Assembly (NCBI GenBank): GCA_018830285.1
Contig: JAHJSB010000010.1
Coordinates: 62,001 to 126,000, forward strand
Length of the DNA: 64,000 nucleotides
Source of the DNA: Alphaproteobacteria bacterium
GTDB taxonomy: Bacteria; Pseudomonadota; Alphaproteobacteria; Caulobacterales; Hyphomonadaceae
Direction: 5' to 3'
The stretch's first letter is position 1; every line of letters begins with the position of its first letter. A program made the position numbers and the translations under genes. Positions 4,809 to 61,477 of the stretch are shown here, one piece after another. The notes beneath the pieces are model-generated. The model worked only from the letters and a program-made list of their open reading frames with translations, ran no database searches and was not told the DNA's origin.

Positions 4809-5284
4809 GCCAGCAGAAAATCCCGTTCGAAGTCATCCGCGCCCGGCGCGCCGGTGCCCGGCTGGCCGCCGTTCAAGCGCTCTATGAAATGGAGCAGACC
4901 AGCAAGTCGGCCAAAGCGACCATTCGCGGCTTCATGGATGACCGTCTCGGCATCGGCCCGGACGAGCAACCGATCGAGGAAGCCGACCCGGACCTGTTCA
5001 AGGCCATCCTCAACGCCGTCGTCGAACACCAGGCCGCCATCGACACCGCCATCCTGTCGCGCCTGTCCGACGGCTGGAAGTTGACCCGCCTCGACGCCAC
5101 GTCGCGGGCCATCCTGCGCGCCGGCGCAGCTGAATTCATCGTCCATCAGGAACTGTCAGAGGCGGTCATCCTCGACGAATATGTCTCGCTCGCGCATGAC
5201 TTTTTCGACGAGACCGAAGCCAAGTTCGTCAACGCCGTGCTGCAGAATGTCGGCCGCGACCTGCGGACAGGCTCCGCCGCCTAG
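4805..5284 (+). CDS. nusB: Transcription antitermination factor NusB
   Basis: RNA-binding partner of NusE in antitermination of rRNA transcription. The 159-residue helical protein has the conserved ARLAAVQALYEME start of the NusB fold and LDATSRAILRAGAAEF followed by ILDEYVSLAHDFFD near the end. A TTG overlapping the ribH stop is the start; the next ATG (residue 29) would remove helix 1. Its last four bases, CTAG, also hold the stop of the convergent epoxide hydrolase gene. Confidence 0.93.
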   Translation: MSQQKIPFEVIRARRAGARLAAVQALYEMEQTSKSAKATIRGFMDDRLGIGPDEQPIEEADPDLFKAILNAVVEHQAAIDTAILSRLSDGWKLTRLDATSRAILRAGAAEFIVHQELSEAVILDEYVSLAHDFFDETEAKFVNAVLQNVGRDLRTGSAA

Positions 5285-6450
5285 CCGGCCTCGCGGGCCC
5301 AGGCGCGCACATCTTCGACAAACAGGTCCGGCTTTTCCATTGCAGCGAAATGCCCGCCGCTGTCCATCTCGCTCCAGTGCGTAATGTTATAAGCCCGCTC
5401 GCACCAGCTCCGCGGCGGGGCCGGGTAAACTGCCTCGCCCGGAAAGTTCGCAAAGCCTGTCGGCGTCTCGCACCGCTTGCCTTCCGGCAGGCTGGCGACG
5501 CCTTCCTGGAACAATGCATTATAGTACCAGATGCTGGTCGCAATGGCGTCGTTGACGAGATAGATCATCACATTCGTCAGCAGCTGGTCTTTCGAATAGA
5601 CGCTGAACAGGTCACCATCCTCGAGGTCCGACCAGCCATGGAATTTCTCAATGATCCAGGCCGCTGTGCCCATGGGCGAGTCCATCAGGGCCATGGCCAG
5701 CGTCTGCGGCTTCGTCGCGTGCTCCATGAAATAGGCGCCCTCGCGCTGCATCGCGGCCTGCGACGTGCCGAGCCAGTCGGTCTCCGCCTGTGTTTCGGGT
5801 ACGGGCGGATTGGGCCGGAAGCCGATCATGTTGAGGTGAATGGCCTTGCACCCGCCCTTGCCGTCGATCGTGCCATGCTCATAGCCAAGCCAAGAGGTGA
5901 CAAGCCCGCCCCAGTCGCCGCCCTGCGCCAGATAGGTCTCGTAGCCCAGCACATCCTGCATCAGCGTGTTCCACAGATTCGCCGTCGCCCGCTGCCCCAT
6001 CGGGGAAGCCGGCTTCTCGGAAAAGCCATAGCCGGGCAGGGACGGGATGATCAGGTCGAACGCATCCTCGGCCTTGCCGCCATGCTTTGACGGGTAAGCG
6101 AGCGGGCCGATTGCCTCCCAGAATTCGAAGACCGACCCCGGCCAGCCATGCGTCAGCAGGAGAGGGCGGCTGCCGCCCGCTTCGCCAACGACATGCACGA
6201 AGTGGATGTCCATCCCGTCCACGTCCGCCTTGTAGCTCGGATAGCGGTTGAGATCGGTCTCTGCCTCGCGCCAGTCATAGCCGGTGAGCCAGTAGCGCTG
6301 CAGCTCCTTCATCACCGGTGTCGACATGCCATAGGCAAAGCCCTGCTCATTGGCGGGGGCCGGAAACCATTTGTAATTTTCGACGCGCTCGCGGATCGCC
6401 TGGATCGTCTTGTCGGGGATATCGATTCGAAACGGTTTTGCCTTGCTCAT
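5281..6450 (-). CDS. Epoxide hydrolase, microsomal-type (EHN domain, alpha/beta hydrolase)
   Basis: Opens epoxides to diols through a covalent ester on an aspartate. Residues 1-110 form the EHN cap region (FRIDIPDKTIQAIRERV). The alpha/beta hydrolase core has the oxyanion motif HGWPGS, the nucleophile motif GGDWGG and a C-terminal catalytic histidine in SGGHFAAMEKPD. At 389 residues it matches bacterial microsomal-type epoxide hydrolases. The start ATG at 6450 is preceded on its strand by GAGGA. It stands alone and runs convergent with nusB, sharing CTAG at 5281-5284. The physiological substrate cannot be read from the sequence. Confidence 0.88.
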   Translation of the reverse strand: MSKAKPFRIDIPDKTIQAIRERVENYKWFPAPANEQGFAYGMSTPVMKELQRYWLTGYDWREAETDLNRYPSYKADVDGMDIHFVHVVGEAGGSRPLLLTHGWPGSVFEFWEAIGPLAYPSKHGGKAEDAFDLIIPSLPGYGFSEKPASPMGQRATANLWNTLMQDVLGYETYLAQGGDWGGLVTSWLGYEHGTIDGKGGCKAIHLNMIGFRPNPPVPETQAETDWLGTSQAAMQREGAYFMEHATKPQTLAMALMDSPMGTAAWIIEKFHGWSDLEDGDLFSVYSKDQLLTNVMIYLVNDAIATSIWYYNALFQEGVASLPEGKRCETPTGFANFPGEAVYPAPPRSWCERAYNITHWSEMDSGGHFAAMEKPDLFVEDVRAWAREAG

Positions 6451-6518
6451 GCGCGTGTCCTCCTGCGCGTCACCATAGGCGCAATGGCGAGGTCAGGCGA
6501 GCCGGACGCAAGGGCAGG

Positions 6519-6860
6519 TCAGACCGAGAAACTCGTCCCGCAGCCGCAAGCAGCTGTTGCATTCGGATTGTTGATCTTGAACGCGGCACCGATCAGTTCG
6601 GTCGAAAAGTCGATCTCTGAGCCGCGCAGGAATTCGAGGCTCATCTCGTCAATCAGCACGTGGGCGCCGTCCCGCGCAACGACCAGGTCGTCTGCGTTTG
6701 CGGCATTGGCAAAGTCGAATTTGTAGGAAAAGCCGGAACATCCTCCCCCCTCGACAGAGACGCGCAGGAAATCGACGCCGTCCTGTTTTGCCAGAATCGC
6801 ATTAATCCGCTTGGCAGCGGAGGCGGACAGGGTCACATCAGGAACTGTTACGGTGCTCAT
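6519..6860 (-). CDS. erpA: Iron-sulfur cluster insertion protein ErpA/IscA family
   Basis: A-type carrier that delivers Fe-S clusters to apoproteins. The 113-residue product has the family cysteines in EGGGCSGFSYKF and the C-terminal CGCGTSF pair. I start at the ATG at 6860 (MSTVTVPDVTLS); a longer frame to 7004 would read back through the start of the divergent dgt gene and adds no domain. It is divergent from dgt, with 27 bases between the two starts, so the promoters must overlap. Confidence 0.93.
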   Translation of the reverse strand: MSTVTVPDVTLSASAAKRINAILAKQDGVDFLRVSVEGGGCSGFSYKFDFANAANADDLVVARDGAHVLIDEMSLEFLRGSEIDFSTELIGAAFKINNPNATAACGCGTSFSV

Positions 6861-6887
6861 GCGAACAAGATAGGGACTAATTGGTCG

Positions 6888-8060: not shown

Positions 8061-8134
8061 CGGCCCTTTTCGCGCCTTTTTGCCATCATGAGCGGCTGCC
8101 CGAGACTGTGGAAAAGCCTTGATGTTCAAGCGTC

Positions 8135-8161: not shown

Positions 8162-8191
8162 CTCAGAGAACAATACTGAAGGAAGTATTCC

Positions 8192-19184: not shown

Positions 19185-20063
19185 CTATGAACCGGATTTG
19201 AGACGCCGCGCAACGGCGCACGCCATCATTGTTCCCAGTTCCGGCCCTTCGAGGGGATAGAGGTAAGGTTCGATCAGTTCCAGTTCCATGAGCAGCAAAC
19301 GCCCGTCCGGGCCTCTCAGCATATCGACCCGCCCGTAGAGCGGCACATCGTCAAGCGTGGAGATGACAGATGTGGCGGCCGCAAGATCTTCAGGTGACGG
19401 CGAGATGGCTAGCTCCGTGCCGCCATATGCCGACTGAATGCGGTAATCCCCCGGAGCAGCTCTTTTGAGCAAGGCATGGCAGAACGCGCCATCGACGAAG
19501 ATGAAACTGATTTCGCCCTCGTCCTGGATCATCTTCAGAAAAGGTTGGACCATCATTGCGTGCGTCATTTCAGGAATTGGGTCGCCGCGCTTCAGGCGGT
19601 GCTGGTCCGCCGCGCCGGCACCGATCTGCCGCTTGAACACAAGATCGTCGCTTCCGAGTTCATCAAACGCCGCCGCCGCGCGTTCTGGTGTCGCCGCGTC
19701 GAGCCAGAGTGTCGGAATCAGTTTGGCTCCCTTGGCCTCCATTTCCCTGAGATAGGTCTTGCGGCTGTTCCAGCGCACGAGTGCGGCGCTGTTGAACAAA
19801 GTCGTGAGGGCGCCGATCCGTTCCAGAGTGTTCAGGAATTCGTCGATCCTGTCCCAGTAGTCCCAAGTCGTTCCGATAATGGCGGCGTCGAATGATGACC
19901 AGTCAACGTATGGGTCATCCCAGGCCAGGTCGTGCAGGCTCATGCCAAGTGCCGCGAAGGGCGGGGCCAGCGCATCCATCATGTAGTCATGCTCAAACGC
20001 GTCGCTGCGACGTGCCGGAGACCCGGGCAGGGTGACGCGGGATGAGAGGAATGCGATCTTCAT
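19185..20063 (-). CDS. ATP-grasp domain protein (RimK/DcsG-like)
   Basis: A 292-residue protein with an ATP-grasp ligase layout: an N-terminal alpha/beta lobe (MKIAFLSSRVTLPGS), the central LVFKRQIGAGAADQHRLKRG loop with the ATP-binding lysine, MVQPFLKMIQDEGEISFIFVDG (the acidic hinge), and the metal-binding YGRVDMLR...LLLMELELIEPYL segment. Similar proteins are annotated as RimK-like or cycloserine-type ligases, but the acceptor substrate is unknown. It is divergent from the PfkB kinase gene. Confidence 0.75.
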   Translation of the reverse strand: MKIAFLSSRVTLPGSPARRSDAFEHDYMMDALAPPFAALGMSLHDLAWDDPYVDWSSFDAAIIGTTWDYWDRIDEFLNTLERIGALTTLFNSAALVRWNSRKTYLREMEAKGAKLIPTLWLDAATPERAAAAFDELGSDDLVFKRQIGAGAADQHRLKRGDPIPEMTHAMMVQPFLKMIQDEGEISFIFVDGAFCHALLKRAAPGDYRIQSAYGGTELAISPSPEDLAAATSVISTLDDVPLYGRVDMLRGPDGRLLLMELELIEPYLYPLEGPELGTMMACAVARRLKSGS

Positions 20064-20146
20064 CGTCGCCGTTTAGCATGACGCGTGGTTGCGTCCAGCG
20101 GCCTTGTCTGGCAATCGGCGGGTTTGGAATTCAAGGCAAAGTAATC

Positions 20147-21145
20147 ATGACCTCCACCCGTTTTGACGTTGTCGGCTTGGGCAATGCGATTGTTGACGTT
20201 CTGTCGCGTGCAGATGATGCCTTCCTTGAAGAGTGGGGCATCCAGAAAAACGCGATGAACCTGATCGAGGAGCCGCGCGCCCACGCCCTGACGGCTGCTG
20301 CAAAAAACCCCATCATCACGTCGGGCGGTAGCGGCGCGAACACCATTGCCGGCATCGCAAGCTTCGGCGGAACTGCGGCCTATATCGGCAAGACGGCAAA
20401 TGATGACCTCGGGCGGCAGTTCCGTGCCGAGATGGCAAGTACAGGTGTGCCATTCGCAACCCATCCGCTCGACACCGGTCCGGCAACCGCGCGCAGCATC
20501 ATCTTTGTCAATGAAGACGGCGCGCGCAGCATGAACACGTTCCTTGGCGCGTCGGTCCTGTTTTCGAAGGATGACGTCGACGAAGAGGTCGTGCGCTCAG
20601 GCAAAATTCTCTATCTGGAAGGCTACCTGTTCGACAAGGATGACGCGAAGACGGCCTTCATCCATGCGTCCGAAATCGCTAAGGCGTCCGGACGCCTCGT
20701 GGCGCTGACGCTTTCCGACAGTTTCTGCGTCGATCGTCACCGCGACAGTTTTCTGCACCTTGTTCAGGGGCATGTGGATATCCTGTTTGCCAATGAAGAA
20801 GAGCTTTTGTCGCTTTATCAGACGCGAGATTTCGACGACGCCATATCGCGCTTGCAGGCCGACACGGCGATCGCTGCGGTCACAAGAAGTGAAAAGGGCT
20901 CTGTCGTCATCGGCGACGGTGACCCGATTGTCGTGGCAGCTGAACCCGTAGACAAAGTTGTCGACACGACCGGGGCTGGCGACCAGTACGCGGCAGGGTT
21001 CCTTTTCGGATACGCAAAGGGACTGCCGCTTGCGACCTGCGCGCGTCTCGGCCATATCGCCGCCGCCGAAGTGATCAGCCATTTTGGACCGCGTCCGGAA
21101 GTTTCGCTTGCCGGTCTTGCCGTTGCGGCAGGCATCGAAGCCTAG
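20147..21145 (+). CDS. PfkB-family carbohydrate kinase, adenosine-kinase-like
   Basis: Phosphorylates a sugar or nucleoside with ATP. The 332-residue protein begins FDVVGLGNAIVDVLS, has the substrate loop SGGSGANTIAGIASFGG and the second PfkB signature DTTGAGDQYAAGFLFGYAKG with the catalytic aspartate. The N-terminal pattern and length match alphaproteobacterial proteins annotated as adenosine kinase, but ribokinase-like activity is not excluded. The start is the ATG at 20147. Its TAG shares CTAG (21142-21145) with the stop of the convergent isomerase gene. Confidence 0.85.
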   Translation: MTSTRFDVVGLGNAIVDVLSRADDAFLEEWGIQKNAMNLIEEPRAHALTAAAKNPIITSGGSGANTIAGIASFGGTAAYIGKTANDDLGRQFRAEMASTGVPFATHPLDTGPATARSIIFVNEDGARSMNTFLGASVLFSKDDVDEEVVRSGKILYLEGYLFDKDDAKTAFIHASEIAKASGRLVALTLSDSFCVDRHRDSFLHLVQGHVDILFANEEELLSLYQTRDFDDAISRLQADTAIAAVTRSEKGSVVIGDGDPIVVAAEPVDKVVDTTGAGDQYAAGFLFGYAKGLPLATCARLGHIAAAEVISHFGPRPEVSLAGLAVAAGIEA

Positions 21146-21735
21146 GCGAGCATTCGTTCGACATAGTCCAGACGGTCATGACCGAAGAAAAGCTCGTCTC
21201 CGACGAGAAAGCTCGGCGCACCGAATACACCGCGCGCCACGGCTTCCTCCGTATTGGCGCGTAGCTTGTCTTTCGCCGCGTCTGAAGCTGCCAGCGCCGC
21301 GATCTGATCCGCGTCGAACCCGTTCGCAGAACACATCGTAGCGACAGCGGCCTTGTCGGATGGGTCTAGCGTGTCCGGTTGTCCCCAGCATGCATGGAAG
21401 CAGGTCGTAATAAACCTGATCTGTTCACTCGGGTCTGGCTCGAGCCCGATGGTCGCCCTGATCAATCCGAGCGTGTTCATCGGAAAGGCGGGATTGGAAT
21501 GGAAGGGCAACCCAATGTGTTCGGCGCATCGAAGGATGTCGCGGTTCATGTAAGCGCCCTTGGCGGGCACCATCCCGGGCGGCCGATTCCCGGTTGCCTG
21601 CATGACTCCGCCCAGGAACATGGGCCTGAAGACCAGCGTCGCGCCGGTCCTTTCAGCCACGCCTTGCGCAACGGGGAGCGCGAGATAGGCTGTCGGACTC
21701 ACATAGTCGAAAAAGAACTCGAACGACTTTGTCAT
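21142..21735 (-). CDS. 2-hydroxychromene-2-carboxylate isomerase family (DsbA/GST-kappa fold)
   Basis: Thioredoxin-fold isomerase of the HCCA family, used in aromatic degradation in some bacteria. The 197-residue protein opens FEFFFDYVSPTAYLAL, with Ser at the GSH-activating position, has MFLGGVMQATGNRPP and ends with GVFGAPSFLVGDELFFGHDRL, the cis-proline loop and family tail. It is divergent from an HxlR regulator gene (68 bases between starts), so control by that regulator is likely (inference). Confidence 0.85.
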   Translation of the reverse strand: MTKSFEFFFDYVSPTAYLALPVAQGVAERTGATLVFRPMFLGGVMQATGNRPPGMVPAKGAYMNRDILRCAEHIGLPFHSNPAFPMNTLGLIRATIGLEPDPSEQIRFITTCFHACWGQPDTLDPSDKAAVATMCSANGFDADQIAALAASDAAKDKLRANTEEAVARGVFGAPSFLVGDELFFGHDRLDYVERMLA

Positions 21736-28735: not shown

Positions 28736-29422
28736 ATGAAACCTTTCGTGCTCATCGCAGAAGACGAGAGCGCCGTCTCTGAACTGTTGCTCTACAACCT
28801 CCAGAAGGAAGACTACGAAGTCGCCATCGCGGCGGATGGCGAAGAAGCATTGATGATGATCGATGAACGTGCGCCAGACCTGATCCTTCTCGACTGGATG
28901 CTTCCCAAGGTCAGCGGCATCGAAGTGTGCCGGCGCATTCGAAGCGGTGGCGCCAATCCAAATATGCCAATCATCATGCTCACCGCGCGCGGCGAAGAAA
29001 GCGACCGAATTCGCGGGCTTGATACGGGCGCAGACGATTACGTCACCAAACCCTTCTCGACCACTGAGCTGATGGCGCGTGTGCGTGCTGTGCTAAGGCG
29101 TATTCGCCCCGGGCTCAAGGAAGACAAAATATCGGTGGGCGACATTGTCATCGACCGCGTCGCGCACCGCGTCATGCGTGATGACGGGGAGATCCACCTC
29201 GGCCCGACCGAATTCCGCCTGCTCGACTATTTCATGCAGCATCCGGGGCGTGTGTTCTCACGCGAGCAGTTGCTGGATACGGTTTGGGGATCGGATGTGT
29301 ATGTCGAAGCCCGTACAGTCGATGTACATGTCGGCCGCCTGCGCAAGGCGCTCCGGCAGGACGGCGGCGAGGATCCCATCCGCACCGTCCGCTCTGCTGG
29401 CTACGCTCTTCGCGGAGACTAG
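28736..29422 (+). CDS. phoB: Phosphate regulon response regulator PhoB
   Basis: OmpR-type regulator that binds Pho boxes when phosphorylated. The receiver domain (1-120) has the acidic pair EDE, phospho-acceptor aspartate in LILLDWMLPKVSG, the threonine in IIMLTARG and the lysine in DDYVTKPFS. The C-terminal winged helix (about 135-228) includes LGPTEFRLLDYFMQHPGRVFSREQLL. AGGAAT precedes the ATG. The sensor gene phoR is not in the operon. Its TAG shares CTAG with the convergent hydrolase gene. Confidence 0.95.
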   Translation: MKPFVLIAEDESAVSELLLYNLQKEDYEVAIAADGEEALMMIDERAPDLILLDWMLPKVSGIEVCRRIRSGGANPNMPIIMLTARGEESDRIRGLDTGADDYVTKPFSTTELMARVRAVLRRIRPGLKEDKISVGDIVIDRVAHRVMRDDGEIHLGPTEFRLLDYFMQHPGRVFSREQLLDTVWGSDVYVEARTVDVHVGRLRKALRQDGGEDPIRTVRSAGYALRGD

Positions 29423-30123
29423 AAAATCTCGTTCAGGAAATCGCTGAGCGATGCGAAACTGCGCCGGTCGGCATCGGCATTGTAGACTGTACCCATATCG
29501 GCGTCATTTGCGCCGAGCGTTGTGAACGCGTGCATGGACTGTCCATGCGCATGAAGTTGCCAGTCGGCACCGGCGCCGTCCATTTCCTTCGCGATCGCCA
29601 GGACATCCTGCGGCGTGGCCATCGGGTCCTGCCAGCCGTGCTCGATGAGCACTTTCGCTTTGATCGTGGGGGAAGGGAGGTTTTCCGCAGGTCGGAACAG
29701 GCCATGGAACGAGCAAACGCCCAAAACATCATGGCCGGCGCGCGCCATGTCGAGAACGCTAAGTCCGCCAAAGCAATAGCCTATGGCGGCTGCCTTGCTG
29801 CCATCCTGGCCATCCTGGGCCTTTGCGGCAGCCAGGCCGCCAGCGAGGCGTTTCTGAAGCTCTGCGCGGTCGCCAACGAGCGGATTCATCAGGGCCTGGC
29901 ATTCCTCGACACTCGTGCCGCGCTTGCCCTTGCCGTAAACATCCATGGCAAAAGCCGCATATCCGAGCTTGTCGGCAACAAGCTGGGCCTTTTGGCGTTC
30001 ATTGTCGCCAAGACCGCCCCAAGCATGCGCGATCACGACGAGCGGCACATTCGATTTCCCGGCTGGACGGACAAAGAAGCCCTCATACGGTTTGCCATCT
30101 ACCTGATAATCAACTGCGCTCAT
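29419..30123 (-). CDS. Dienelactone hydrolase family protein
   Basis: Alpha/beta hydrolase with a cysteine nucleophile. The 234-residue protein shows IAHAWGGLGDNERQKAQ, nucleophile motif IGYCFGG, the acid in HGWQDPMATPQD and the histidine in HGQSMHAFT. The ATG at 30123 has AGAGG about nine bases upstream; an ATG at 30132 is also in frame. No aromatic-degradation genes are adjacent, so the substrate is open. It converges with phoB on CTAG at 29419-29422. Confidence 0.85.
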   Translation of the reverse strand: MSAVDYQVDGKPYEGFFVRPAGKSNVPLVVIAHAWGGLGDNERQKAQLVADKLGYAAFAMDVYGKGKRGTSVEECQALMNPLVGDRAELQKRLAGGLAAAKAQDGQDGSKAAAIGYCFGGLSVLDMARAGHDVLGVCSFHGLFRPAENLPSPTIKAKVLIEHGWQDPMATPQDVLAIAKEMDGAGADWQLHAHGQSMHAFTTLGANDADMGTVYNADADRRSFASLSDFLNEIF

Positions 30124-30263
30124 CTGTTTCATCCTCTTGTTGTTTCTGTGGCCAGATACACGACATTCACTGCTGCGTTTCAAGCCCGGCAGCGATTAGT
30201 ATGCGCTTTCTAGACTTCTATCTTATTTCTGGCCCCATCGGACAACCACGAAGGAGCCACACA

Positions 30264-33645: not shown

Positions 33646-33682
33646 CGCGCCCAACGTGCCGCACAGACCAAGGAACCAGCTC

Positions 33683-34525
33683 ATGGCCGCAACTGAACCG
33701 CGCCCAAGAATCACGATGCAGGATATTGACGGCGTCATGCTGCGTACGGCCTTCTGGGCTGCCCGGCAGGATGAGGGCAAGCGTCCGCTCCTGTTCTTTA
33801 ACGGAATCGGCGCCAACCTTGAGCTGACCCACGCCCTTGGCGACATGTTTCCCGATCGCGACATCATCACCTTCGATGTGCCGGGCGTTGGCAAGAGTCC
33901 GGTCACCCAATGGCCATACCGGCCATGGATGCTGGCTCGCTGGGCCCGCAAGCTGCTCGACCAGTTCGGAATCGATGAGGTCGACGTGATGGGTGTTTCC
34001 TGGGGCGGGGCGCTCGCCCAGCAGTTCGCCTTCCAGTATCGTAACCGCGTCGGCAAACTCATCCTCTGCGCCACCACGGCCGGCATGACCATGATCCCCG
34101 GTAAACCCAAGTCGCTCTCCAAGATGGTTGATGCCCGCCGTTACACCGATCCGAACTATATGCAGGACAATTTCTCGACGCTCTACGGCGACGAGGCAGA
34201 CGCGCAGGCTGGCGAGCATATTACCCGCCTGATGCCGCCCGATCCGAAGGGCTATGTCTTCCAGCTTCTGGCCTTTGTCGGCTGGTCAAGCCTGCCATTC
34301 ATCCGCTTCCTGCGCATGCCTGCGCTCGTGATGATGGGTGACAACGACTCGATTGTGCCGGTGGCCAATGGCCACATCCTGAAAGTGGCGCTGCCGAATT
34401 CGCGACTCCACATTGTGGAGGGCGGTGGCCACTTGTTTTTGGTGACCCGGGCAGACGAGACCGCCAGCGTCATCCGTGGCTTCCTCGAAGAACCGCACGA
34501 ATTTCAGGGCAAGGCGGCGGCCTAG
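33683..34525 (+). CDS. phaZ: Alpha/beta hydrolase, PhaZ-like intracellular PHA depolymerase
   Basis: Probable hydrolase of stored polymer. The 280-residue protein has LLFFNGIGANLELT (oxyanion region), the lipase box GVSWGG, the acid in MMGDNDSIVPV and the histidine in GGGHLFLVTRA. These match medium-chain-length PHA depolymerase PhaZ of pseudomonads, where it also sits directly behind phaC. The start is the ATG at 33683, 37 bases after the phaC stop, behind AAGGAA. Its TAG shares CTAG with the convergent ligase gene. Confidence 0.83.
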   Translation: MAATEPRPRITMQDIDGVMLRTAFWAARQDEGKRPLLFFNGIGANLELTHALGDMFPDRDIITFDVPGVGKSPVTQWPYRPWMLARWARKLLDQFGIDEVDVMGVSWGGALAQQFAFQYRNRVGKLILCATTAGMTMIPGKPKSLSKMVDARRYTDPNYMQDNFSTLYGDEADAQAGEHITRLMPPDPKGYVFQLLAFVGWSSLPFIRFLRMPALVMMGDNDSIVPVANGHILKVALPNSRLHIVEGGGHLFLVTRADETASVIRGFLEEPHEFQGKAAA

Positions 34526-36099: not shown

Positions 36100-36123
36100 C
36101 AGTGGCCCTTTGACTTCGTGAGG

Positions 36124-36191
36124 AGTGAACTCACTTTTGCAACATTTTGTCACGTAAGGGCCTTTGTGCAACTGATAATGCAAGTTTGCAT
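36124..36191. promoter_or_regulatory. Inverted repeats in the divergent ligase/lipA promoter region
   Basis: Two symmetrical sites lie in the 150 bases between the divergent starts: AGTGA-AC-TCACT at 36124-36135 and ATGCAA-GT-TTGCAT at 36178-36191. TGCAA also occurs near 36138 and 36167, so the motif appears four times within about 55 bases when the palindrome arms are counted. This looks like clustered operators for a fatty-acid or lipoate-responsive factor; the regulator is unknown. Confidence 0.45.
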
Positions 36192-36249
36192 ATGCAGTCT
36201 GCGCGGCATTTCCCTTGATGAATCGCCTGCTCGCGTCCATCTTCCGCGA

Positions 36250-37221
36250 ATGGCAACACTCATCGATCTCACGCCGTCCGGGCGCAAGCACCGGCATCCT
36301 GAAAAGCAGGCTCGCCCTGACACACCGATATTGCGCAAGCCGGACTGGATACGCGTCAAGGCGCCGACTTCGGCAGGCTATGCCGCAACGCGCGATATCG
36401 TTAAGTCCAATGGACTCATCACAGTCTGCCAGGAGGCAAGCTGCCCCAATATCGGTGAGTGCTGGGAAAAGAAGCACGCCACGATGATGATTCTGGGCGA
36501 TGTTTGCACCCGTGCATGTTCATTTTGCAATGTCTCCACGGGCAAGCCGACGGCGGGTGTGGATGCCGACGAGCCGAGACGCGTCGGCGACGCCGTCGCG
36601 GAAATGGGCCTCGAGCACGTCGTCATCACGTCAGTAGATCGAGACGACCTCGAAGATGGGGGCGCGATGCACTTCGTCCACGTTATCAAAGCTATCCGCT
36701 CGGCCTCTCCCGGCACGACGATCGAGATCCTGACACCGGATTTCCTGCGCAAGGATGGTTGGGAAAACAGGGTCATCGATGCTCGGCCCGATGTGTTCAA
36801 TCACAACCTCGAAACCGTGCCGCGCCTTTATCTGAAGATCCGCCCGGGCGCGCGCTACTTCCACTCGCTTCGCTTGCTGCAGAAGGTTAAGGACCGCGAC
36901 CCGTCGCAATTCACCAAGTCAGGACTGATGGTCGGCCTCGGCGAGACCAAGGAAGAGGTCATGCAGGTTATGGACGACATGCGGTCTGCCGGCGTCGATT
37001 TTCTCACCATCGGCCAATACCTGCAGCCGACGCGCAAGCACGCGGCGATTGACCGGTTTGTCCCACCTGAAGAATTCAAGGCACTTGAAGAAATCGCGCG
37101 CGCCAAGGGCTTCCTCATGGTCTCGGCCACGCCGCTCACGCGCTCCAGCTATCATGCCGGGGAAGACTTCGCCCTTATGCGTGCCGCCCGTGAAGCCAAG
37201 CTCGCGGGCCTGCCAGCTTAA
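36250..37221 (+). CDS. lipA: Lipoyl synthase
   Basis: Radical SAM enzyme that inserts two sulfurs into octanoyl groups on lipoyl domains. The 323-residue protein has the auxiliary cluster cysteines in [16 protein letters not shown], the radical SAM motif [10 protein letters not shown] (C-x3-C-x2-C) and the C-terminal RSSYHAGE with the cluster-binding serine. The start is the ATG at 36250; a longer open frame reaches back to 36046 over the ligase start. The following COQ10-like gene starts two bases after its stop. Confidence 0.97.
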
Positions 37222-37222
37222 A

Positions 37223-37699
37223 ATGCCCCGGTTCTCAAAATCGGTCCGCGTGCCTTACTCAACCACGCAGGCATTCGATCTCGTATCGGACGTTGCCCGC
37301 TATCCGGAATTCATCAAGTGGATCACGGCGCTGCGCGTGTCTGAACATCGTGTCGATGAATCCGGGGTCCGGCATTGCCGCGGCGATGCCGTCGTGGGGT
37401 TCAAAGGGTTCGTTGAGCGTTTCTCGACCACGGTCACGGCAGATGTCAGCGAAGGCGCGGTTATCGCCAGCTTGATCAAAGGGCCATTCAGGCATTTGAA
37501 AGCGGAATGGGCGATCGTGCCATTGGAGCGGGGAGGCTGCGATATTGCACTCCAGATCAATTACGAATTCCGCAACGTGCTCATCGCGATGCTGGCAGCC
37601 GCCAACCACGACATCGCCGTCGACCGGATCATGAGTGCGTTTCTCTCGGAAGCGCATAAGCGCTACGCAGATGCGCCTAACGCATCTGCACCTGGATAA
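37223..37699 (+). CDS. COQ10/RatA-like START-domain protein
   Basis: A 158-residue helix-grip protein of the polyketide cyclase/COQ10 family, expected to bind ubiquinone or a related lipid and support respiration. It shows RVPYSTTQAFDLVSDVARYPEF at the N-terminus (conserved start of the fold) and INYEFRNVLIAMLAAANHDI near the C-terminus. The lipA-coq10-cinA neighbourhood is conserved in Alphaproteobacteria. Toxin-like annotation (RatA) is common for this family but not supported here by any antitoxin gene. It overlaps convergent cinA by 23 bases. Confidence 0.85.
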   Translation: MPRFSKSVRVPYSTTQAFDLVSDVARYPEFIKWITALRVSEHRVDESGVRHCRGDAVVGFKGFVERFSTTVTADVSEGAVIASLIKGPFRHLKAEWAIVPLERGGCDIALQINYEFRNVLIAMLAAANHDIAVDRIMSAFLSEAHKRYADAPNASAPG

Positions 37700-38168
37700 G
37701 GCTCAACGCCGTCTCGATGGATGCCAGCCGCACTTCGGACCGGCCAACGTCTCCCAGCTGCAACATTTCATGCACCACGGCGCGGTTTTCGCGGGCACAC
37801 GCAACATGCACGGTGCCGACCGGTTTCATGCGCGTACCGCCGCCGGGGCCGGCGACGCCGGTGATGGCGACAGCGATATTCGCCCGGCTCGCCTCGAGCG
37901 CGCCTTCGGCCATCATGCGCGCAACCGGCTCTGACACGGCACCATAATCGGCGATTACATCGCCCGCGATGCCGAGCATTTCTTCCTTCGCCCGGTTCGT
38001 ATAGGTGACGAAACCGCGTTCGAAGACGGCGGACGAACCGGGAATGTCGGTGAGCAGGGCGGCGAGCAGGCCGCCAGTGCAGCTTTCAGCGGTGCATATC
38101 TTCAAGCGTGCCCGTTCGGCATCGTCGAGGATCAGCATAGCGAGATTTCTGAGGCGGGCTGGAAACAT
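37677..38168 (-). CDS. CinA C-terminal domain protein (nicotinamide-nucleotide amidohydrolase)
   Basis: Deamidates nicotinamide mononucleotide in pyridine-nucleotide recycling. The 163-residue single-domain protein shows the hallmark TAESCTGGLLAALLTDIPGS, FERGFVTYTNRAKEEMLG and AITGVAGPGGGTRMKPVGTVHVA. It lacks the N-terminal MoaB-like half found in full CinA, as is usual in this class. It begins nine bases after ispDF on the same strand. A shorter start at residue 11 is possible. Confidence 0.92.
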   Translation of the reverse strand: MFPARLRNLAMLILDDAERARLKICTAESCTGGLLAALLTDIPGSSAVFERGFVTYTNRAKEEMLGIAGDVIADYGAVSEPVARMMAEGALEASRANIAVAITGVAGPGGGTRMKPVGTVHVACARENRAVVHEMLQLGDVGRSEVRLASIETALSLIQVQMR

Positions 38169-38177: not shown

Positions 38178-39320
38178 CTAGCGCGCAGCAACCAAAGGCA
38201 CCAGCACCGCGATGGCCTCTGCGGCAATTCCCTCGCGTCGCCCGGTGAAGCCGAGCCCTTCCGTGGTCGTCGCCTTGACGCTGACAGCCGACAGCGGAAG
38301 GCCCAGCAGTTCAGCCGTGCGGACCCGCATCGCCTCGCGATGTGGTTTTACTTTTGGCGCTTCGCAGATCACCGTGATGTCGCAACTCGACACGGCATAG
38401 CCTTCGGTCTCGGCCAATCGCACCGATTCCTTCAGGAAGATCGCGCTGTCCGCATTCTTCCAGCGCTCGTCTGAGGGTGGGAAATGGTCCCCGATGTCGC
38501 CCAGTGCGACCGCGCCAAGAATCGCATCCGTCAGCGCGTGCCAGGCGGCATCGGCATCGGAATGCCCTTTCAGCTTGGCGTCATGCGGGATCGCCACACC
38601 ACACAGCGTGACATGATCGCCCGGCTCGAAGGCATGAACGTCAAATCCCTTGCCGATGCGAGGAATGGCGCAGACCGGTCTCAACAGACGAGCGAGCATG
38701 TCAAAATCCTCGGGAAACGTAATCTTGTGAAGGCGCTCGTCGCCGGGAATGAGTTCGACCCGCGCGCCGGTAGCTTCCATTGCTGCAAGGTCGTCCACGA
38801 GATCGGCGCCTGCCGCGTCGAGCGCCGAACGAATGGCACCCAACCGGAACGCTTGAGGTGTCTGGACCCGGAACAGGCCGTCGCGGGGCACAGTCAACAG
38901 CTTGCCCTCAAGCGAGGTTTTCAAGGCATCGGAAACGGGTAGGGCAGGGGCGACAGCATCGGCCCCGTCCATGGCCTTCAGGAGCGAAGAAATAATCATC
39001 TGGCTGAGACCGGGCCTTGCCGCATCGTGGATCAGGACGGGCGTGTCCGGTGGCAGGTCGAGAACGGCCAGCCCATTGCGCACGGACTGGGTTCGCGAGG
39101 GACCGCCCGGCACCCATACTACCCCCTCACCACACCCTTCGGTTTCCCCGCCGATGGACGCGACGACCACGATCGGACCCACTTGTGGGTGCTCGCGGAA
39201 GGCCTCGATCGACCAGTCAAGCACCTGTCGGCCCAGAAGGGTCTCGAATTGCTTGGGCCCGGCGCGCCCTGAGCGCGCCCCTTTGCCTCCCGCAACAATT
39301 ATTGCAGCTGCCAATGTCAT
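38178..39320 (-). CDS. ispDF: Bifunctional IspD/IspF of the MEP isoprenoid pathway
   Basis: Fuses the MEP cytidylyltransferase (residues about 1-220) to the MECDP synthase (about 222-380), two non-consecutive steps of isoprenoid synthesis. IspD is seen in [15 protein letters not shown] and [11 protein letters not shown]; IspF in [14 protein letters not shown], with metal-binding Asp and His, and [19 protein letters not shown]. The fusion is typical of Alpha- and Epsilonproteobacteria. The start is the ATG at 39320; the frame stays open to 39614 over the dusB start, which I reject. Confidence 0.96.
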
Positions 39321-39440
39321 GCCCGGCTTTCTAGGCGAGACCAGCAATTCTGGCCATAGGTCATTGCAAAGCCGCTTTTTTGCATAGCTGCGCGTCTTTT
39401 GTGCACTTGCGAAGAGGCAAAAAGTCAGAACTATAGAAAC

Positions 39441-40430
39441 ATGACTGATTTTAAGGCACCCCAAGTCTGGCTCGCCCCCATGTCGGGAGCAACTGACGCG
39501 CCGATGCGCCGGCAAGCCGTTCGCTTCGGCGCGCCCGCTGTTGTGTCTGAAATGGTTGCCAGTGAAACGCTCGCGTCTGAGCGGCCAGACATGGTTCGCC
39601 GCACCTGCCGCCACGAAGGCGAAGGCTATTGGATCGTCCAGCTCGCCGCGCGCCGTCCTGCAGATATGTATACAGGCGCAGCATTGATGCGGGATGCCGG
39701 TGTGGACGTCATCGACATCAATATGGGCTGCCCCTCCAAACAGGTCACAGGTGGCCAGTCAGGGTCGGCCCTGATGCAGGATATCCCGCTGGCAACCCGC
39801 ATCATCGAATCGGCCCTCGACGGCGCTCAGGGTATACCCGTCACGCTCAAGATGCGTCTGGGTTGGGATGACGACAACCTGAACGCGCCCGAACTCGCCA
39901 GCATCGCTGAGGCTTTGGGCGTCCGCATGATCACTGTCCATGGTCGGACCCGCTGCCAGTTTTACACAGGCACGGCCAATTGGGCTGCTGTTCGTGACAC
40001 CGTCAACGCCGTTTCGCTTCCTGTGATCGTCAACGGGGATATCAATTCCTTGGGCGATGCTGAAGCTGCGCTCGCTGCGTCTGGCGCCCATGGCGTGATG
40101 ATCGGTCGTGCCGCCATGGGCCGGCCTTGGCTGGCTGGTGAAATCGCCGCCGGGCTGGCAGATACGTCCTTCGCCACGCCAAGTCTCGCCGCACAATTCG
40201 ACAGCCTTTCCGAACAGATCCGTGACTCGGTCGCCTTGTACGGCGCCCCCCTCGGGACGAGGATGGTTCGCAAGCATGTTTCTGCCGCCATCGACACCCT
40301 GGATATCCCGCTGGCGCCTGCCCGACGGCGATCACTGCGCGCCGAACTGTGCCGGATAGCCGATCCTGACCAGCTTATCGTCTCTCTGGAGACACTCTAT
40401 TTGAAACCCCAACGGCTTGAGGCAGCTTGA
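39441..40430 (+). CDS. dusB: tRNA-dihydrouridine synthase, DusB/NifR3 type
   Basis: Flavoenzyme that reduces uridines in tRNA D-loops. The 329-residue protein has [15 protein letters not shown], the [20 protein letters not shown] loop with the catalytic cysteine, [15 protein letters not shown] and [12 protein letters not shown]. It is the first gene before ntrB, as nifR3 is in rhizobia and Azospirillum. The start is the ATG at 39441. ntrB follows two bases after the stop. Confidence 0.95.
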
Positions 40431-49804: not shown

Positions 49805-51124
49805 TTGAACGACAAGCTCATTGATCGTTTGCCAGAGCCGGAGATTGCCGGCGCGGTCATTCCTTGGTTTTCACCTGTAAATCGTCCGACTGAAGAGCGG
49901 ATGCAAGAAACGGCTGGCTTGGTTGAAGCACTGGGCTGCGAACTTGCATTTGTTCACGCAGACCACGTCCGAAAAGTGAATTCGTCTGTGCTCTTCTCCG
50001 GCGGTTTGCTGGATCGATTTGCCGACGACCTTGAAGAACACAATTGCACAATTGCGGTCGTGGATGGTGCGCTCACGCCGGTTCAGCAGAGAAACCTGGA
50101 AACGCGTCTGGGTGTCAAAGTCATCGACCGGACCGGCTTGATTCTGGAGATTTTCGGGCTGCGAGCCCGCACAAAGGAAGGCAGGCTGCAGGTAGAGCTT
50201 GCGCGACTTTTGTATGAGCGCTCCAGACTGGTCCGCACATGGACGCACCTCGAACGACAACGGGGAGGCGGCGGATTCCTGTCCGGTCCGGGTGAAAGCC
50301 AACTCGAATCCGACCGCCGGATGTTGGATGACAAGATCGTTCGGTTGCGTCGTGACCTCGAAGATGTTCGCCGCACGCGAGCGGTCCAGCGTGCCGGAAG
50401 GAAGCGGGGCGGTAAGCCTGTAATCGCGCTCGTCGGCTATACGAACTCAGGCAAATCGACTCTGTTCAACCGGCTCTCGGGCGCCAAGGTCTTCGCCAAG
50501 GACATGCCGTTCGCAACGCTTGACCCAACGATCCGCCGCATCGACCTACCCACGCTCGGGGAGGCGGCGCTCATCGACACTGTCGGATTTATCACGGACT
50601 TGCCAACCCATCTTATCGACAGCTTCAAGGCGACTCTCGAAGAAGCGATGCAGGCCGACCTGCTGGTTCATGTCAGGGATCGGTCCAGCGCCGCCGACGT
50701 GGAACAGGCAAAGGACGTCGACATCGTGCTTGCGCGACTGGAGAAAGAGACAGGACTCCCGCTCCCGCCCATGATCGAAGCATGGAACAAGTCTGATATC
50801 CTGCCGCCCCAGCGTTTCGAGGCACTAGAGATAGCGGCAAAGGGCAACACCGAAACGCCCGCAGTGCTGGTTTCTGCTCTGCAGGGGAGGGGAATGGACG
50901 CCCTGCTTCATCAGATTGAACGTGCCCTGCTTCGTGGGGCACGAGACGTGGCTGTGACCCTGAGCCCTCAGGATGGACGTGCTCGCGCATGGCTTCACAG
51001 TCATGGAGACGTCAACGCGGAAACCAACCTTAGCGATGGACGTGTCGCGCTTAGCGTTCGCCTTCCGATCGATCGTGTCGGCCAGTTCCAGGCTGAGTTC
51101 CCGAATATCGGGATTGATGACTAG
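49805..51124 (+). CDS. hflX: GTPase HflX
   Basis: Ribosome-splitting GTPase. The 439-residue protein has an N-terminal domain including RLQVELARLLYERSRL and GGGGFLSGPGESQLE, then the G-domain: G1 GYTNSGKSTLFN, G3 IDTVGFITDLP and G4 WNKSDIL. A TTG at 49805 just after the hfq stop is the start; the next ATG is at residue 33. Its TAG shares CTAG (51121-51124) with the stop of convergent mazG. Confidence 0.95.
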   Translation: MNDKLIDRLPEPEIAGAVIPWFSPVNRPTEERMQETAGLVEALGCELAFVHADHVRKVNSSVLFSGGLLDRFADDLEEHNCTIAVVDGALTPVQQRNLETRLGVKVIDRTGLILEIFGLRARTKEGRLQVELARLLYERSRLVRTWTHLERQRGGGGFLSGPGESQLESDRRMLDDKIVRLRRDLEDVRRTRAVQRAGRKRGGKPVIALVGYTNSGKSTLFNRLSGAKVFAKDMPFATLDPTIRRIDLPTLGEAALIDTVGFITDLPTHLIDSFKATLEEAMQADLLVHVRDRSSAADVEQAKDVDIVLARLEKETGLPLPPMIEAWNKSDILPPQRFEALEIAAKGNTETPAVLVSALQGRGMDALLHQIERALLRGARDVAVTLSPQDGRARAWLHSHGDVNAETNLSDGRVALSVRLPIDRVGQFQAEFPNIGIDD

Positions 51125-51948
51125 TCTGTGGCCTTCTCGGCGCGTTTGACGCGCTGCCAGTAAGCCTCCTGTTCGTCCAATCCCAAATCGGCAAACCTCA
51201 CGCCGTCTGCCGTGGCTTCTGCTTCCATGGCCCGGAATCTCCGTTCGAACTTCGCGTTGGCCCGGCGTAACGCCTTCTCAGGATCGACATCAAGACGACG
51301 ACTCAGATTGGCCGCGACAAACAGAAGGTCGCCAAGTTCATCTTCGATGTCGTCCCTGATGCCCGATTGGATGGCATCGCGGACTTCCTGGGTTTCTTCG
51401 GTCAGCTTGTCGAAAATTGGCTCTGCCTCTGTCCAGTCAAACCCAACGCGCGCCGCACGGTTCTGCAGTTTCTCCGCCCGCAGCAATGCTGGAAGCGATA
51501 TGGCAACGCCATCAAGTGCACTGGGGCTCACATGGCTTGCCTTGTTCGCGCGCTCGTCTGCCTTGATGCGCTCCCAGGCACGCGTTTGTTCAGCGGCTGA
51601 ACGATTGTCCGGAGACTCAAATACATGCGGGTGTCGTCGCACCATTTTATCTGCGATCCCGTTCGTGACATCGACGATGTCGAAAACGCCGTCTTCGGCA
51701 GCCATCTGGCTATGGAAAACGACCTGGAAAAGCAGGTCTCCAAGCTCCTCCTTGAGATCAGCCATGTCGCCACGCTCAATCGCATCAGCCACTTCATAGG
51801 CTTCTTCGATCGTGTAGGGGGCTATCGTCGCAAAAGTCTGTTCAATATCCCATGGGCACCCCGACACGGGGGTGCGCAGCTTGGACATTACGTCGATCAG
51901 TTTGAGAAAAGCGTGGGCAGAGGAGGGCATATCGAGTGAGGCTGTCAT
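51121..51948 (-). CDS. mazG: Nucleoside triphosphate pyrophosphohydrolase MazG
   Basis: Hydrolyses (d)NTPs to monophosphates, house-cleaning of the nucleotide pool. The 275-residue protein has the classical RTPVSGCPWDIEQT and TIEEAYEVADAIE with the metal-binding EExx motif and a second MazG half with TEETQEVRDAIQSG and DEELGDLLF-like EDELGDLLFVAANL. AGGAG lies six bases before the ATG at 51948; an ATG at 51954 is too close to it. Convergent with hflX on CTAG. Confidence 0.94.
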   Translation of the reverse strand: MTASLDMPSSAHAFLKLIDVMSKLRTPVSGCPWDIEQTFATIAPYTIEEAYEVADAIERGDMADLKEELGDLLFQVVFHSQMAAEDGVFDIVDVTNGIADKMVRRHPHVFESPDNRSAAEQTRAWERIKADERANKASHVSPSALDGVAISLPALLRAEKLQNRAARVGFDWTEAEPIFDKLTEETQEVRDAIQSGIRDDIEDELGDLLFVAANLSRRLDVDPEKALRRANAKFERRFRAMEAEATADGVRFADLGLDEQEAYWQRVKRAEKATD

Positions 51949-51954
51949 TGTCAT

Positions 51955-55649: not shown

Positions 55650-55683
55650 AAACGGCCCGGCAAACAGCCGGGCCGTTTTTGTT
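55650..55683 (+). terminator. Intrinsic terminator of the ompA-like gene
   Basis: AAACGGCCCGGC (55650-55661) and GCCGGGCCGTTT (55667-55678) pair perfectly around AAACA and run into a T-rich tail, 20 bases after the stop codon. It is the clearest plus-strand terminator in the window. Confidence 0.92.
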
Positions 55684-57000: not shown

Positions 57001-57001
57001 G

Positions 57002-59496: not shown

Positions 59497-60812
59497 CCGC
59501 TTTTGAAGTGAATTTCGATGGCCTGATCGGTCCGTCGCACAATTATGGTGGCCTGTCAGATGGCAACCTCGCGAGTGCCACGCATGCGGGGGCTGTCTCC
59601 AACCCGCGTGAAGCGGCCCTGCAGGGCCTCGAAAAGATGCGGACAATGCTGCGGGCAGGCCTCGTCCAAGGCGTCCTGCCACCCTTGCCTCGGCCAAACT
59701 TTGATTTCCTCGTCTCGGCAGGTTTCAGAGGCACTGATGCCCAGATCATCGAAGCTGCCGCTCGGCTGGCACCGCATCTGCTCAAGACCGCCTATTCAGC
59801 CAGCAACATGTGGACGGCAAATGCTGCAACAGTATCCCCGTCAGCGGACACGTCAGATGGCCGCCTTCACTTCACGACAGCAAACCTGTCGACGATGCTT
59901 CATCGCAGTATCGAGCATCCGGATACGACAGCGACGCTGATCTCGCTTTTCGACAATGAAGACCATTTTGCCGTGCATTCGGCGCTTCCGATGCACCCCG
60001 ATTTTGCCGACGAGGGCGCCGCCAACCATGTACGTCTTTGTGCCGAGCATGGCGCAGCTGGCGTCGAGCTGTTTGTATTCGGCCGGTTGGCTGGAGAAAA
60101 CGCGGCCGGGTTTCCGGCCCGCCAAAGCCGCCTGGCAAGTGAATCTATTGTGCGCGGCCATGGTCTGGACACCTCTCGTTCGTTACTGTTGCGCCAATCC
60201 GTCGACGCGATCGATGCGGGCGCATTCCACAATGATGTCGTCTGCGTCGGCGCGCTGGATACGCTGTTCTTTCATGAGATGGCCTTCCAGGACACCAAGG
60301 GCGCGCTCGCAGCCATCCGGCAAGCGGCTGAAGGCCTGTTTGAATTGAAACCGGTCATGGTGCCCGATGCGGAAGTCCCGATCTCCGATGCGATCCGGTC
60401 CTATTTGTTCAATTCTCAACTGGTCCAGATGCCCGGCGAGGACCGCCTGGTTCTGGTCGCGCCGACTGAATCCCAGGAAATGGAATCGTCCCGCGTATTC
60501 TGCGAAAAAATGGTCTCGGGAAACGGCCCGATCGGTCGCGTTGAATATGTCGATGTCCGCCAGTCCATGCGCAATGGCGGCGGCCCGGCGTGCCTGCGCC
60601 TCCGTGTCGTGATGACTGAGGCTGAAGTAAATGCCTGTCATCAGGGCGTGCTTCTGGACGAGGAAGCCATCGATGAGCTTCAGGACGTCGTCCGGGCGAC
60701 CTACCGGGACCGTCTGGCGCCATCCGATCTTGCCGATCCGGTTTTCGCAGACGAATGCCGCGCAGCGCGGGAACAATTGCTGGCCGTCCTTGACCTTGAG
60801 TCACTCGCCTGA
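59493..60812 (+). CDS. astB: N-succinylarginine dihydrolase
   Basis: Converts succinylarginine to succinylornithine, releasing ammonia and carbon dioxide. The 439-residue protein has the hallmark NFDGLIGPSHNYGGLSDGN, MWTANAATVSPSADT, HNDVVCVGALDTLFFHE and the catalytic cysteine in RNGGGPACLRLRV. The start overlaps astD in an ATGA junction. maiA follows after 17 bases with AGGAG. Confidence 0.96.
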   Translation: MTAFEVNFDGLIGPSHNYGGLSDGNLASATHAGAVSNPREAALQGLEKMRTMLRAGLVQGVLPPLPRPNFDFLVSAGFRGTDAQIIEAAARLAPHLLKTAYSASNMWTANAATVSPSADTSDGRLHFTTANLSTMLHRSIEHPDTTATLISLFDNEDHFAVHSALPMHPDFADEGAANHVRLCAEHGAAGVELFVFGRLAGENAAGFPARQSRLASESIVRGHGLDTSRSLLLRQSVDAIDAGAFHNDVVCVGALDTLFFHEMAFQDTKGALAAIRQAAEGLFELKPVMVPDAEVPISDAIRSYLFNSQLVQMPGEDRLVLVAPTESQEMESSRVFCEKMVSGNGPIGRVEYVDVRQSMRNGGGPACLRLRVVMTEAEVNACHQGVLLDEEAIDELQDVVRATYRDRLAPSDLADPVFADECRAAREQLLAVLDLESLA

Positions 60813-60829
60813 ACGACAGGAGATAAAGC

Positions 60830-61477
60830 ATGCTGAAACTCTATGACTATTGGCGGTCGTCGGCAGCTTACAGGGTGCGTATTGCGCTGAACCTGAAAGA
60901 GGCGCGATACGAGAATGTGCCCGTGAACATCACACCCGGACAGGACGAGCAATTGCAGGACACCTATCGGCTCGTCAATCCTCAGATGCGCGTACCGTCC
61001 ATCGAAGTAGACGGCCACATCGCCGGACAATCTCTGGCCATCATCGAATGGATTGACGAGACCATGCCGGGGCCCGCCTTGCTGCCCAAAGAACCTTGGG
61101 TGCGTCTTCAGGCGCGCGCCTTCGCGGACACGATCGCTTGTGACATCCATCCCCTGAACAACCTGTCGGTACTCGCCGCGTTGAGGCAGGACTTTGGCGC
61201 AGACGATGCCGCAGTGAAGGATTGGTATCACGATTGGATCAGGCGCGGTTTCCTTGCGCTTGAATCGATTGCACAGGACCTGCCTCAGACAAGCCTGTTG
61301 TTTGGTGACGAACCGACGATCGCGGAAATCTGTCTCGTGCCCCAGGTCGCCAACGCAAGGCGATTCGATATGGACCTGTCCGACTATCCCCGCCTTGTTG
61401 AAGTCGATGCAGCCTGCCGCGAAATCTCGGCGTTCGCGCGCGCGGCACCCGAATCGCAAACCCGGCCTTCAGCCTAG
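60830..61477 (+). CDS. maiA: Maleylacetoacetate isomerase / zeta-class glutathione transferase
   Basis: Glutathione-dependent isomerase of tyrosine and phenylalanine breakdown. The 215-residue protein has the zeta-class LYDYWRSSAAYRVRIALN (with SSAAY in place of the usual SSCS), NPQMRVPSIEVDG and the C-terminal GDEPTIAEICLVPQV. The usual partners (fumarylacetoacetase, homogentisate dioxygenase) are not adjacent; it may be carried by the AST operon. The TAG shares CTAG with the stop of a convergent gene. Confidence 0.87.
   Translation: MLKLYDYWRSSAAYRVRIALNLKEARYENVPVNITPGQDEQLQDTYRLVNPQMRVPSIEVDGHIAGQSLAIIEWIDETMPGPALLPKEPWVRLQARAFADTIACDIHPLNNLSVLAALRQDFGADDAAVKDWYHDWIRRGFLALESIAQDLPQTSLLFGDEPTIAEICLVPQVANARRFDMDLSDYPRLVEVDAACREISAFARAAPESQTRPSA

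What the first reader, a model, noticed from the sequence alone, without database searches (positions are those of the whole stretch)
5281..61477. Six convergent gene pairs all end on a shared CTAG
At 5281-5284 (nusB / epoxide hydrolase), 21142-21145 (PfkB / isomerase), 29419-29422 (phoB / dienelactone hydrolase), 34522-34525 (phaZ / ligase), 51121-51124 (hflX / mazG) and 61474-61477 (maiA / uncharacterised) both genes use TAG and overlap by exactly four bases, the tetranucleotide CTAG. Four tetramers could serve a 4-base convergent stop overlap (CTAG, TTAG, CTAA, TTAA), yet all six are CTAG. These make up more than half of the convergent junctions in the window and leave no room for terminators between the genes, so the transcripts must overlap or end inside the opposing gene.
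Basis: seen in the sequence. Interest (0 to 1): 0.7.

Follow-up and report, generated by a model that had tools for sequence, protein, structure and literature searches.

The report
Ordinary shared stops of converging genes
Six pairs of genes that run towards each other share their last four letters, CTAG; this is a known and common way for neighbouring bacterial genes to end, and CTAG is the form a GC-rich genome would mostly be expected to use, so it is tidy but ordinary.

Summary
At all six places two opposite-strand ORFs end on the same CTAG, all twelve genes look real, and six of ten convergent junctions called in the window are of this kind. That CTAG itself is special is not supported. 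Four bases is the shortest possible convergent stop overlap, and its outer bases are the third bases of the two last sense codons, so a genome rich in C at third positions and fairly rich in TAG mostly gives CTAG. In a 793-kb sample (22% of this Hyphomonas genome) 28 of 118 convergent junctions overlap by four bases, 25 of them CTAG. Orthologous junctions keep the overlap but drift among CTAG, CTAA, TTAG and TTAA. Three AT-rich alphaproteobacteria use TTAA in 5 of 7 and E. coli K-12 in 3 of 3. PMC2174442 already lists the four tetramers. The window is locally rich (6 of 10 against 22 of 108). A CTAG excess remains over all six composition models tried, smallest with the most generous (P = 0.017; 0.07 without the window). 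No clear hairpin signature was found.

The parts
5281..5284 (.). CTAG shared by nusB (4805-5284, +) and epoxide hydrolase-like gene (5281-6450, -)
   Evidence: ORFs; NusB PF01029 and EHN PF06441; 4-base overlap in 15 of 24 loci with the partner and in 4 of 4 near kin, CTAG x2, CTAA x2
21142..21145 (.). CTAG shared by PfkB-family kinase gene (20042-21145, +) and DsbA-like thioredoxin-fold gene (21142-21735, -)
   Evidence: ORFs; PF00294 and PF01323; partner not found in the fetched regions of the four near kin or G022; in 19 loci with the partner, own included: overlap 4 in 6, overlap 10 in 8, gap in 5
29419..29422 (.). CTAG shared by a PhoB-like response regulator gene (28736-29422, +) and dienelactone hydrolase-like gene (29419-30183, -)
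   Evidence: ORFs; PF00072/PF00486 and PF01738; 4-base overlap in 21 of 28 loci with the partner
34522..34525 (.). CTAG shared by alpha/beta hydrolase gene (33584-34525, +) and AMP-binding ligase gene (34522-36477, -)
   Evidence: ORFs; PF00561 and PF00501; CTAG in 2 of 4 near kin, 3-base gap in the other 2
51121..51124 (.). CTAG shared by hflX (49805-51124, +) and mazG (51121-51954, -)
   Evidence: ORFs; HflX domains and MazG; 4-base overlap in 7 of 21 family-wide loci with the partner and in 4 of 4 near kin
61474..61477 (.). CTAG shared by glutathione S-transferase-like gene (60830-61477, +) and an uncharacterised gene (61474-62475, -)
   Evidence: ORFs; GST domains; partner without Pfam match, found in 40 of 41 Hyphomonas genomes, own included; 4-base overlap in 2 of 4 near kin and in G022

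Best explanation
These are ordinary minimum-length convergent gene overlaps. Geometry, from the genetic code: overlaps of 1, 2, 3 and 5 bases between two convergent stop codons are impossible, 4 is possible only as YTAR (CTAG, CTAA, TTAG, TTAA), and longer ones need particular codons in the other gene. The first base of the tetramer is the third base of the + gene's last sense codon, and the last base is the complement of the third base of the - gene's last sense codon. A genome with much C at third positions and fairly many TAG stops therefore gives mostly CTAG without any preference for the palindrome. Origin (inferred; in line with the published stop-codon-mutation model): a gene that ends in YTAR already carries an in-frame stop for the opposing strand; when the neighbour's own stop is lost or shifted, its frame can be caught there. 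The state then lasts (inferred), since a hit on the central TA removes both stops at once, while changes between C and T at the ends only move it among the four tetramers (such differences between species are shown).
For: Own genome sample (793 kb, 118 convergent junctions): 28 overlap by 4, 8 by more, 35 have gaps of 0-20. C share of C+T is 0.73 at third positions and 0.80 before the stop of genes outside these overlaps; TAG is 0.61 of TAG+TAA. No significant dependence between the two ends of the tetramer in the own genome (Fisher P = 0.14) or among orthologous junctions (P = 0.28), though numbers are small. Orthologous junctions: 49 of 92 loci with the partner have the 4-base overlap: 34 CTAG, 11 CTAA, 2 TTAG, 2 TTAA, the own four included. 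Four near kin: 16 of 20 comparisons 4-base, 10 CTAG, 3 CTAA, 3 TTAG; the other four have gaps of 1-3 bases, with the - gene still ending on CTAG in three of those four. Three AT-rich alphaproteobacteria: outer base C in 3 of 14 against 52 of 56 in the own sample. E. coli K-12, 100 kb: 3 of 11 annotated convergent pairs overlap by 4, all TTAA. A random incoming frame at tandem gene ends would stop at exactly 4 in 70 of 1032 cases, at 5-30 in 159 and past 30 in 803, so survivors at 4 fit removal of long overlaps.
Against: The CTAG share in the own genome (25 of 28) stays above all six composition models tried: P = 0.017 with the most generous (0.70), 5e-5 with plain third positions (0.53). One AT-rich genome (G145) gave one CTAG, and the sphingomonad loci, with C share 0.74, gave no CTAG in 3. 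Counts outside Hyphomonas are small. In G022, a more distant genus mate, 4 of the 5 comparable pairs have gaps (24 to 744 bases) and only one the 4-base overlap, so the state is not kept throughout the genus. The capture step was not watched happening; only neighbouring states were seen.
Confidence: 0.86

Rival explanations
1. CTAG is kept as a functional two-way signal: a site that sets where converging RNA polymerases or ribosomes stop, or an RNA-level coupling of the two genes.
For: CTAG excess over all six composition models tried, P from 1e-8 to 0.017. CTAG is rare in the window (26 against 72 expected), and 6 of its 26 copies sit at these junctions. Head-on polymerase collisions end convergent transcripts in E. 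coli (passages of PMC13082048), and arfA antisense RNA regulates mscL (passages of PMC10070815), a pair sharing TTAA in E. coli K-12.
Against: Tetramers interchange between species. No significant dependence between the two ends. RNA folding around the 28 junctions is no stronger than in gene interiors at 50 nt (P 0.75 and 0.22), whereas other short convergent junctions show a mild excess. Rarity of CTAG in coding DNA is expected in part because TAG in frame is a stop (inference).
Confidence: 0.07
2. Selection for compactness packs convergent genes to the minimum, so the excess of 4-base overlaps is adaptive compression rather than a by-product of capture and loss of long overlaps.
For: 28 junctions at exactly 4 against 35 spread over gaps 0-20 and 8 longer overlaps. 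Lillo and Krakauer discuss compression for overlaps (passages and section 16 of PMC2174442).
Against: The same genome keeps many convergent gaps: of the 37 junctions without overlap among the 58, 14 exceed 60 bases. A genus mate (G022) has only 3 of 43. Capture plus removal of long overlaps explains the spike without a benefit.
Confidence: 0.2
3. Gene-calling artefact: one stop of several pairs is mis-annotated.
For: High-GC genomes carry long false antisense ORFs (general knowledge); my caller missed 16 of 100 annotated E. coli 3' ends, all of genes of 543 bases or less.
Against: 11 of 12 proteins have Pfam matches and the twelfth is conserved. 10 of 10 proteins from five of the other CTAG pairs of the genome match Pfam.
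Confidence: 0.01

Closest known systems
4-bp convergent (tail-to-tail) gene overlap, tetramers CTAA/TTAA/CTAG/TTAG (Lillo and Krakauer 2007, PMC2174442)
   Same: Same geometry and same four tetramers; the paper reports a jump at length 4 for convergent overlaps pooled from 58 prokaryotes and, for E. coli overlaps longer than 4, agreement with origin by stop-codon mutation (passages and section 16 seen).
   Different: The passages I read do not give the split between the four tetramers or tie it to third-position composition; here CTAG dominates.
mscL/arfA in E. coli (PMC10070815)
   Same: Convergent pair; 4-base stop overlap in K-12.
   Different: Shares TTAA; has a reported stem-loop in the arfA 3' coding part and antisense regulation (passages); nothing of the kind is shown for the Hyphomonas pairs.
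Bidirectional terminators at convergent genes, such as ynaJ-uspE in E. coli (PMC13082048 and works cited there)
   Same: A possible way for transcripts to end where there is no intergenic space.
   Different: There a hairpin positions the collision (passages); no clear hairpin excess at the 4-base junctions.

Membership tests
4-bp convergent stop overlap | Two real genes on opposite strands, tail to tail | tested here: met
4-bp convergent stop overlap | Overlap of exactly four bases made of both stop codons, tetramer YTAR | tested here: met
4-bp convergent stop overlap | Tetramer free to vary among the four forms, following base composition | tested here: met
   Varies among relatives; follows composition broadly, with small numbers outside Hyphomonas and a residual CTAG excess in the own genome
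Hairpin-positioned bidirectional terminator | RNA hairpin near the junction on one or both strands | tested here: inconclusive
   28 junctions against 442 gene-interior sites, no excess at 50 nt (P 0.75, 0.22); at 80 and 150 nt the + strand P is 0.08 and 0.07, the - strand 1.0 and 0.20
Hairpin-positioned bidirectional terminator | Transcript 3' ends focused at the junction | not testable with these tools
   No transcript data on hand
Antisense-coupled convergent pair (mscL/arfA type) | One transcript regulates the other | not testable with these tools
   No expression data

The most novel reading that the evidence does not exclude
In this Hyphomonas lineage CTAG, otherwise rare in its genes, is being favoured as a two-way stop at the tails of convergent genes beyond what codon and stop usage give, as a cheap replacement for intergenic terminators.
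Probability: 0.08. Interest if true: 0.45.

Novelty: already known. Interest (0 to 1): 0.15.

Why it matters
It largely settles a natural question about a striking pattern: the identity of the shared tetramer is mostly read from codon third positions and stop usage, so it should not be taken as a signal by itself. The useful remainder is that such junctions offer a clean set of naturally varying sites (CTAG, CTAA, TTAG, short gaps at the same gene pair across related species) on which the fate of converging transcripts without intergenic space could be measured.

Tried and rejected
Stop usage as the only null: rejects chance strongly (P about 1e-8 for 25 of 28), but it is the wrong null, since the outer bases are also codon third positions. 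Six composition models were tried; I lean on the most generous, and give all six in the observation check. Palindrome preference: tested as dependence between the two ends; not significant. Hairpin terminators: consensus scans of three stretches of the window that hold the six junctions gave 18, 28 and 15 sites against shuffle means of 15.2, 16.6 and 14.0, and folding at the junctions gave no clear excess. Gene-calling artefact: rejected. Papers: searches; judged by the titles and abstract starts listed (lists capped at 8 to 20), none besides PMC2174442 was about CTAG at convergent stops, and subscription journals are mostly not held. Passages were read of PMC2174442, PMC10070815, PMC4161906 and PMC13082048, and section 16 of PMC2174442; others were seen in search listings only.

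Limits of the counts: my gene caller is a simple Markov caller; on 100 kb of E. coli K-12 it found 84 of 100 annotated 3' ends (pseudogenes, genes cut by the ends and one 33-base nested gene left out of the 100), missing genes of 543 bases or less, and 2 of the 3 annotated 4-base overlaps. The genome sample is 793 kb of 3.56 Mb, not the whole genome, and in two short contigs of it (L041, L052) no gene was called. In one search only 30 loci per search were read, the best ones (of 38 to 41 genomes with a match); for one of them (L149) the partner match is weak. The groups of loci include the hflX junction on which they were chosen, so I draw no rate from them; their raw counts are Hyphomonas 20 of 32, Maricaulis and kin 2 of 12, sphingomonads 3 of 26, rhodobacters 7 of 23, Thiomonas and kin 0 of 2. 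One search (a similarity search meant to find an E. coli control) gave nothing used. One search was superseded, because many loci lay on the reverse strand.

Full report
What is there. The window is bases 62001-126000 of contig 3 of a 3.56-Mb, 65-contig genome. Its genus is very likely Hyphomonas: contigs of its same-genus relatives G049, G044 and G052 have the exact lengths of contigs of H. johnsonii MHS-2, H. chukchiensis and Hyphomonas sp. BRH_c22. Eleven of twelve proteins match Pfam families; the twelfth, 61474-62475 on the minus strand, is found in 40 of 41 Hyphomonas genomes searched, own included. In the window my caller finds ten convergent junctions, six of them CTAG.

How often. In the window plus 40 other stretches of the same genome (793 kb) there are 118 convergent junctions; 28 overlap by exactly four bases, 8 by more, and 35 have gaps of 0 to 20 bases. 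Without the window it is 22 of 108. The window is thus locally rich (Fisher P = 0.011), but it was chosen for that; the same region in four near kin is rich too (19 of 46), as shared descent would give. Two other Hyphomonas samples gave 7 of 32 and 3 of 43, and eight alphaproteobacteria of other families 0 to 4 out of 10 to 19 junctions each. Ten of ten proteins from five of the other CTAG pairs match Pfam.

Why four. From the code alone: stop codons end in A or G while their complements begin with C or T, so overlaps of 1 to 3 are impossible; an overlap of 5 would need a stop to begin where the other's complement has A. At 4 both stops share a central TA, which TGA cannot do, leaving YTAR. 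Reading an incoming opposite frame into 344 tandem gene ends in each of three phases, it stops at exactly 4 in 70 of 1032 cases, at 5-30 in 159, at 31-100 in 314 and later in 489. Real junctions are 28 at 4 and 8 longer. Long overlaps are evidently removed (pressure against them is also stated in the abstract start of PMC2478687, listing); the 4-base state is the shortest landing place. The landing step itself is inference.

Why CTAG. The first base of the tetramer is the third base of one gene's last sense codon and at the same time fixes the third base of the other gene's stop. In this genome C makes up 0.73 of C+T at third positions and 0.80 of C+T before the stops of genes outside these overlaps; TAG is 0.61 of TAG+TAA. 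Six models of the expected CTAG share run from 0.37 (stop usage alone) through 0.53 (third positions) to 0.70 (last-codon base and stop usage together); 25 of 28 (0.89) is seen, with P from 1e-8 through 5e-5 to 0.017, and without the window (19 of 22) from 2e-6 through 0.0011 to 0.073. So most of the effect is composition, and some excess is left. The two ends show no significant dependence on one another in the own genome (P = 0.14) or among orthologous junctions (P = 0.28), which gives no support to a preference for the palindrome, though the test is weak at these numbers.

Related genomes. For four of the six junctions I read the best 30 loci each. Of 92 loci that hold both partners, 49 have the 4-base overlap: 34 CTAG, 11 CTAA, 2 TTAG, 2 TTAA, the own four included. 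The phoB junction is 4-base in 21 of 28; nusB in 15 of 24; hflX in 7 of 21 (family-wide); pfkB in 6 of 19, with 8 of 19 overlapping by ten bases instead. In four near kin, five of the six pairs can be compared (the sixth lacks the partner there): 16 of 20 are 4-base (10 CTAG, 3 CTAA, 3 TTAG) and the other four have gaps of one to three bases. In G022, further off, only one of those five is 4-base and four have gaps. The state is kept among near kin and recurs across the genus; the letters drift. In three of the four near-kin gap cases the minus gene still ends on CTAG just downstream, so a small shift of the plus gene's end could join them again (inference).

Other compositions. The outer base is C in 3 of 14 places in three AT-rich alphaproteobacteria (GC 29-40%), in 6 of 14 in rhodobacterial loci (GC 48%), in 1 of 2, 2 of 2 and 2 of 2 in G080, G082 and G092 (GC 55-70%), in 4 of 4 in Maricaulis and kin, in 10 of 14 and 6 of 6 in two other Hyphomonas, and in 52 of 56 in the own sample. 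Against the rule stand one CTAG in the most AT-rich genome and the sphingomonad loci (3 of 6 at GC 64%, no CTAG). G101 and G121 had no 4-base overlap. In 100 kb of E. coli K-12, three of eleven annotated convergent pairs overlap by four, all TTAA.

Transcripts. There is indeed no space between the genes. Terminator-like matches in the window are near the shuffled count in two of three stretches and above it in one (28 against 16.6). Around the 28 junctions folding energy equals that of gene interiors at 50 nt (P 0.75, 0.22), with a weak tendency on the plus strand at longer windows (0.08, 0.07), while other short convergent junctions fold slightly more. How these transcripts end is open: Rho, polymerase collision (PMC13082048, passages) or read-through into the neighbour are all possible and untested here.

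Known or new. Lillo and Krakauer (PMC2174442; passages and section 16) list the same four tetramers, report the jump at length four for convergent overlaps pooled from 58 prokaryotes and find longer convergent overlaps of E. coli in agreement with a stop-codon-mutation origin. I saw no statement there, in the passages read, of how the four tetramers divide; the composition rule given here is simple arithmetic on codon positions. I file the finding as already known, with an ordinary explanation.

Noticed in passing
37677-37699: A 23-base convergent overlap (37223-37699 + / 37677-38138 -) kept at exactly 23 bases in four of four near Hyphomonas kin, although the stop codons themselves vary; in G022 the pair has a 6-base gap.
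   Followed up: partly
window 20147-21145 / 21142-21735 in relatives L114, L117, L120-L122, L124, L125, L127: The pfkB/dsbA-like junction has a 10-base convergent overlap (YTACGCCTGA or TCACGCCTGA) in 8 of 19 loci with the partner: another recurrent short state in the same phase as 4.
   Followed up: partly
55650-55678: A strong intrinsic-terminator-like hairpin (12 pairs, then T-rich) just after the gene ending at 55629, in contrast to the 4-base junctions.
   Followed up: no
38178-39614: One ORF carries both IspD and YgbB (IspF-type) domains, a fused isoprenoid-pathway gene.
   Followed up: no
whole window: CTAG occurs 26 times against 72 expected from dinucleotides; 10 of the 26 are at the ends of called genes, 6 of these shared by two genes.
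   Followed up: partly
sphingomonad loci L240-L274 (subset): 10 of 26 convergent junctions called with overlaps longer than four bases; may be a caller artefact of pooling species.
   Followed up: no
61474-62475: Uncharacterised gene without Pfam match, found in 40 of 41 Hyphomonas genomes, own included; the others at 37-69% identity.
   Followed up: partly
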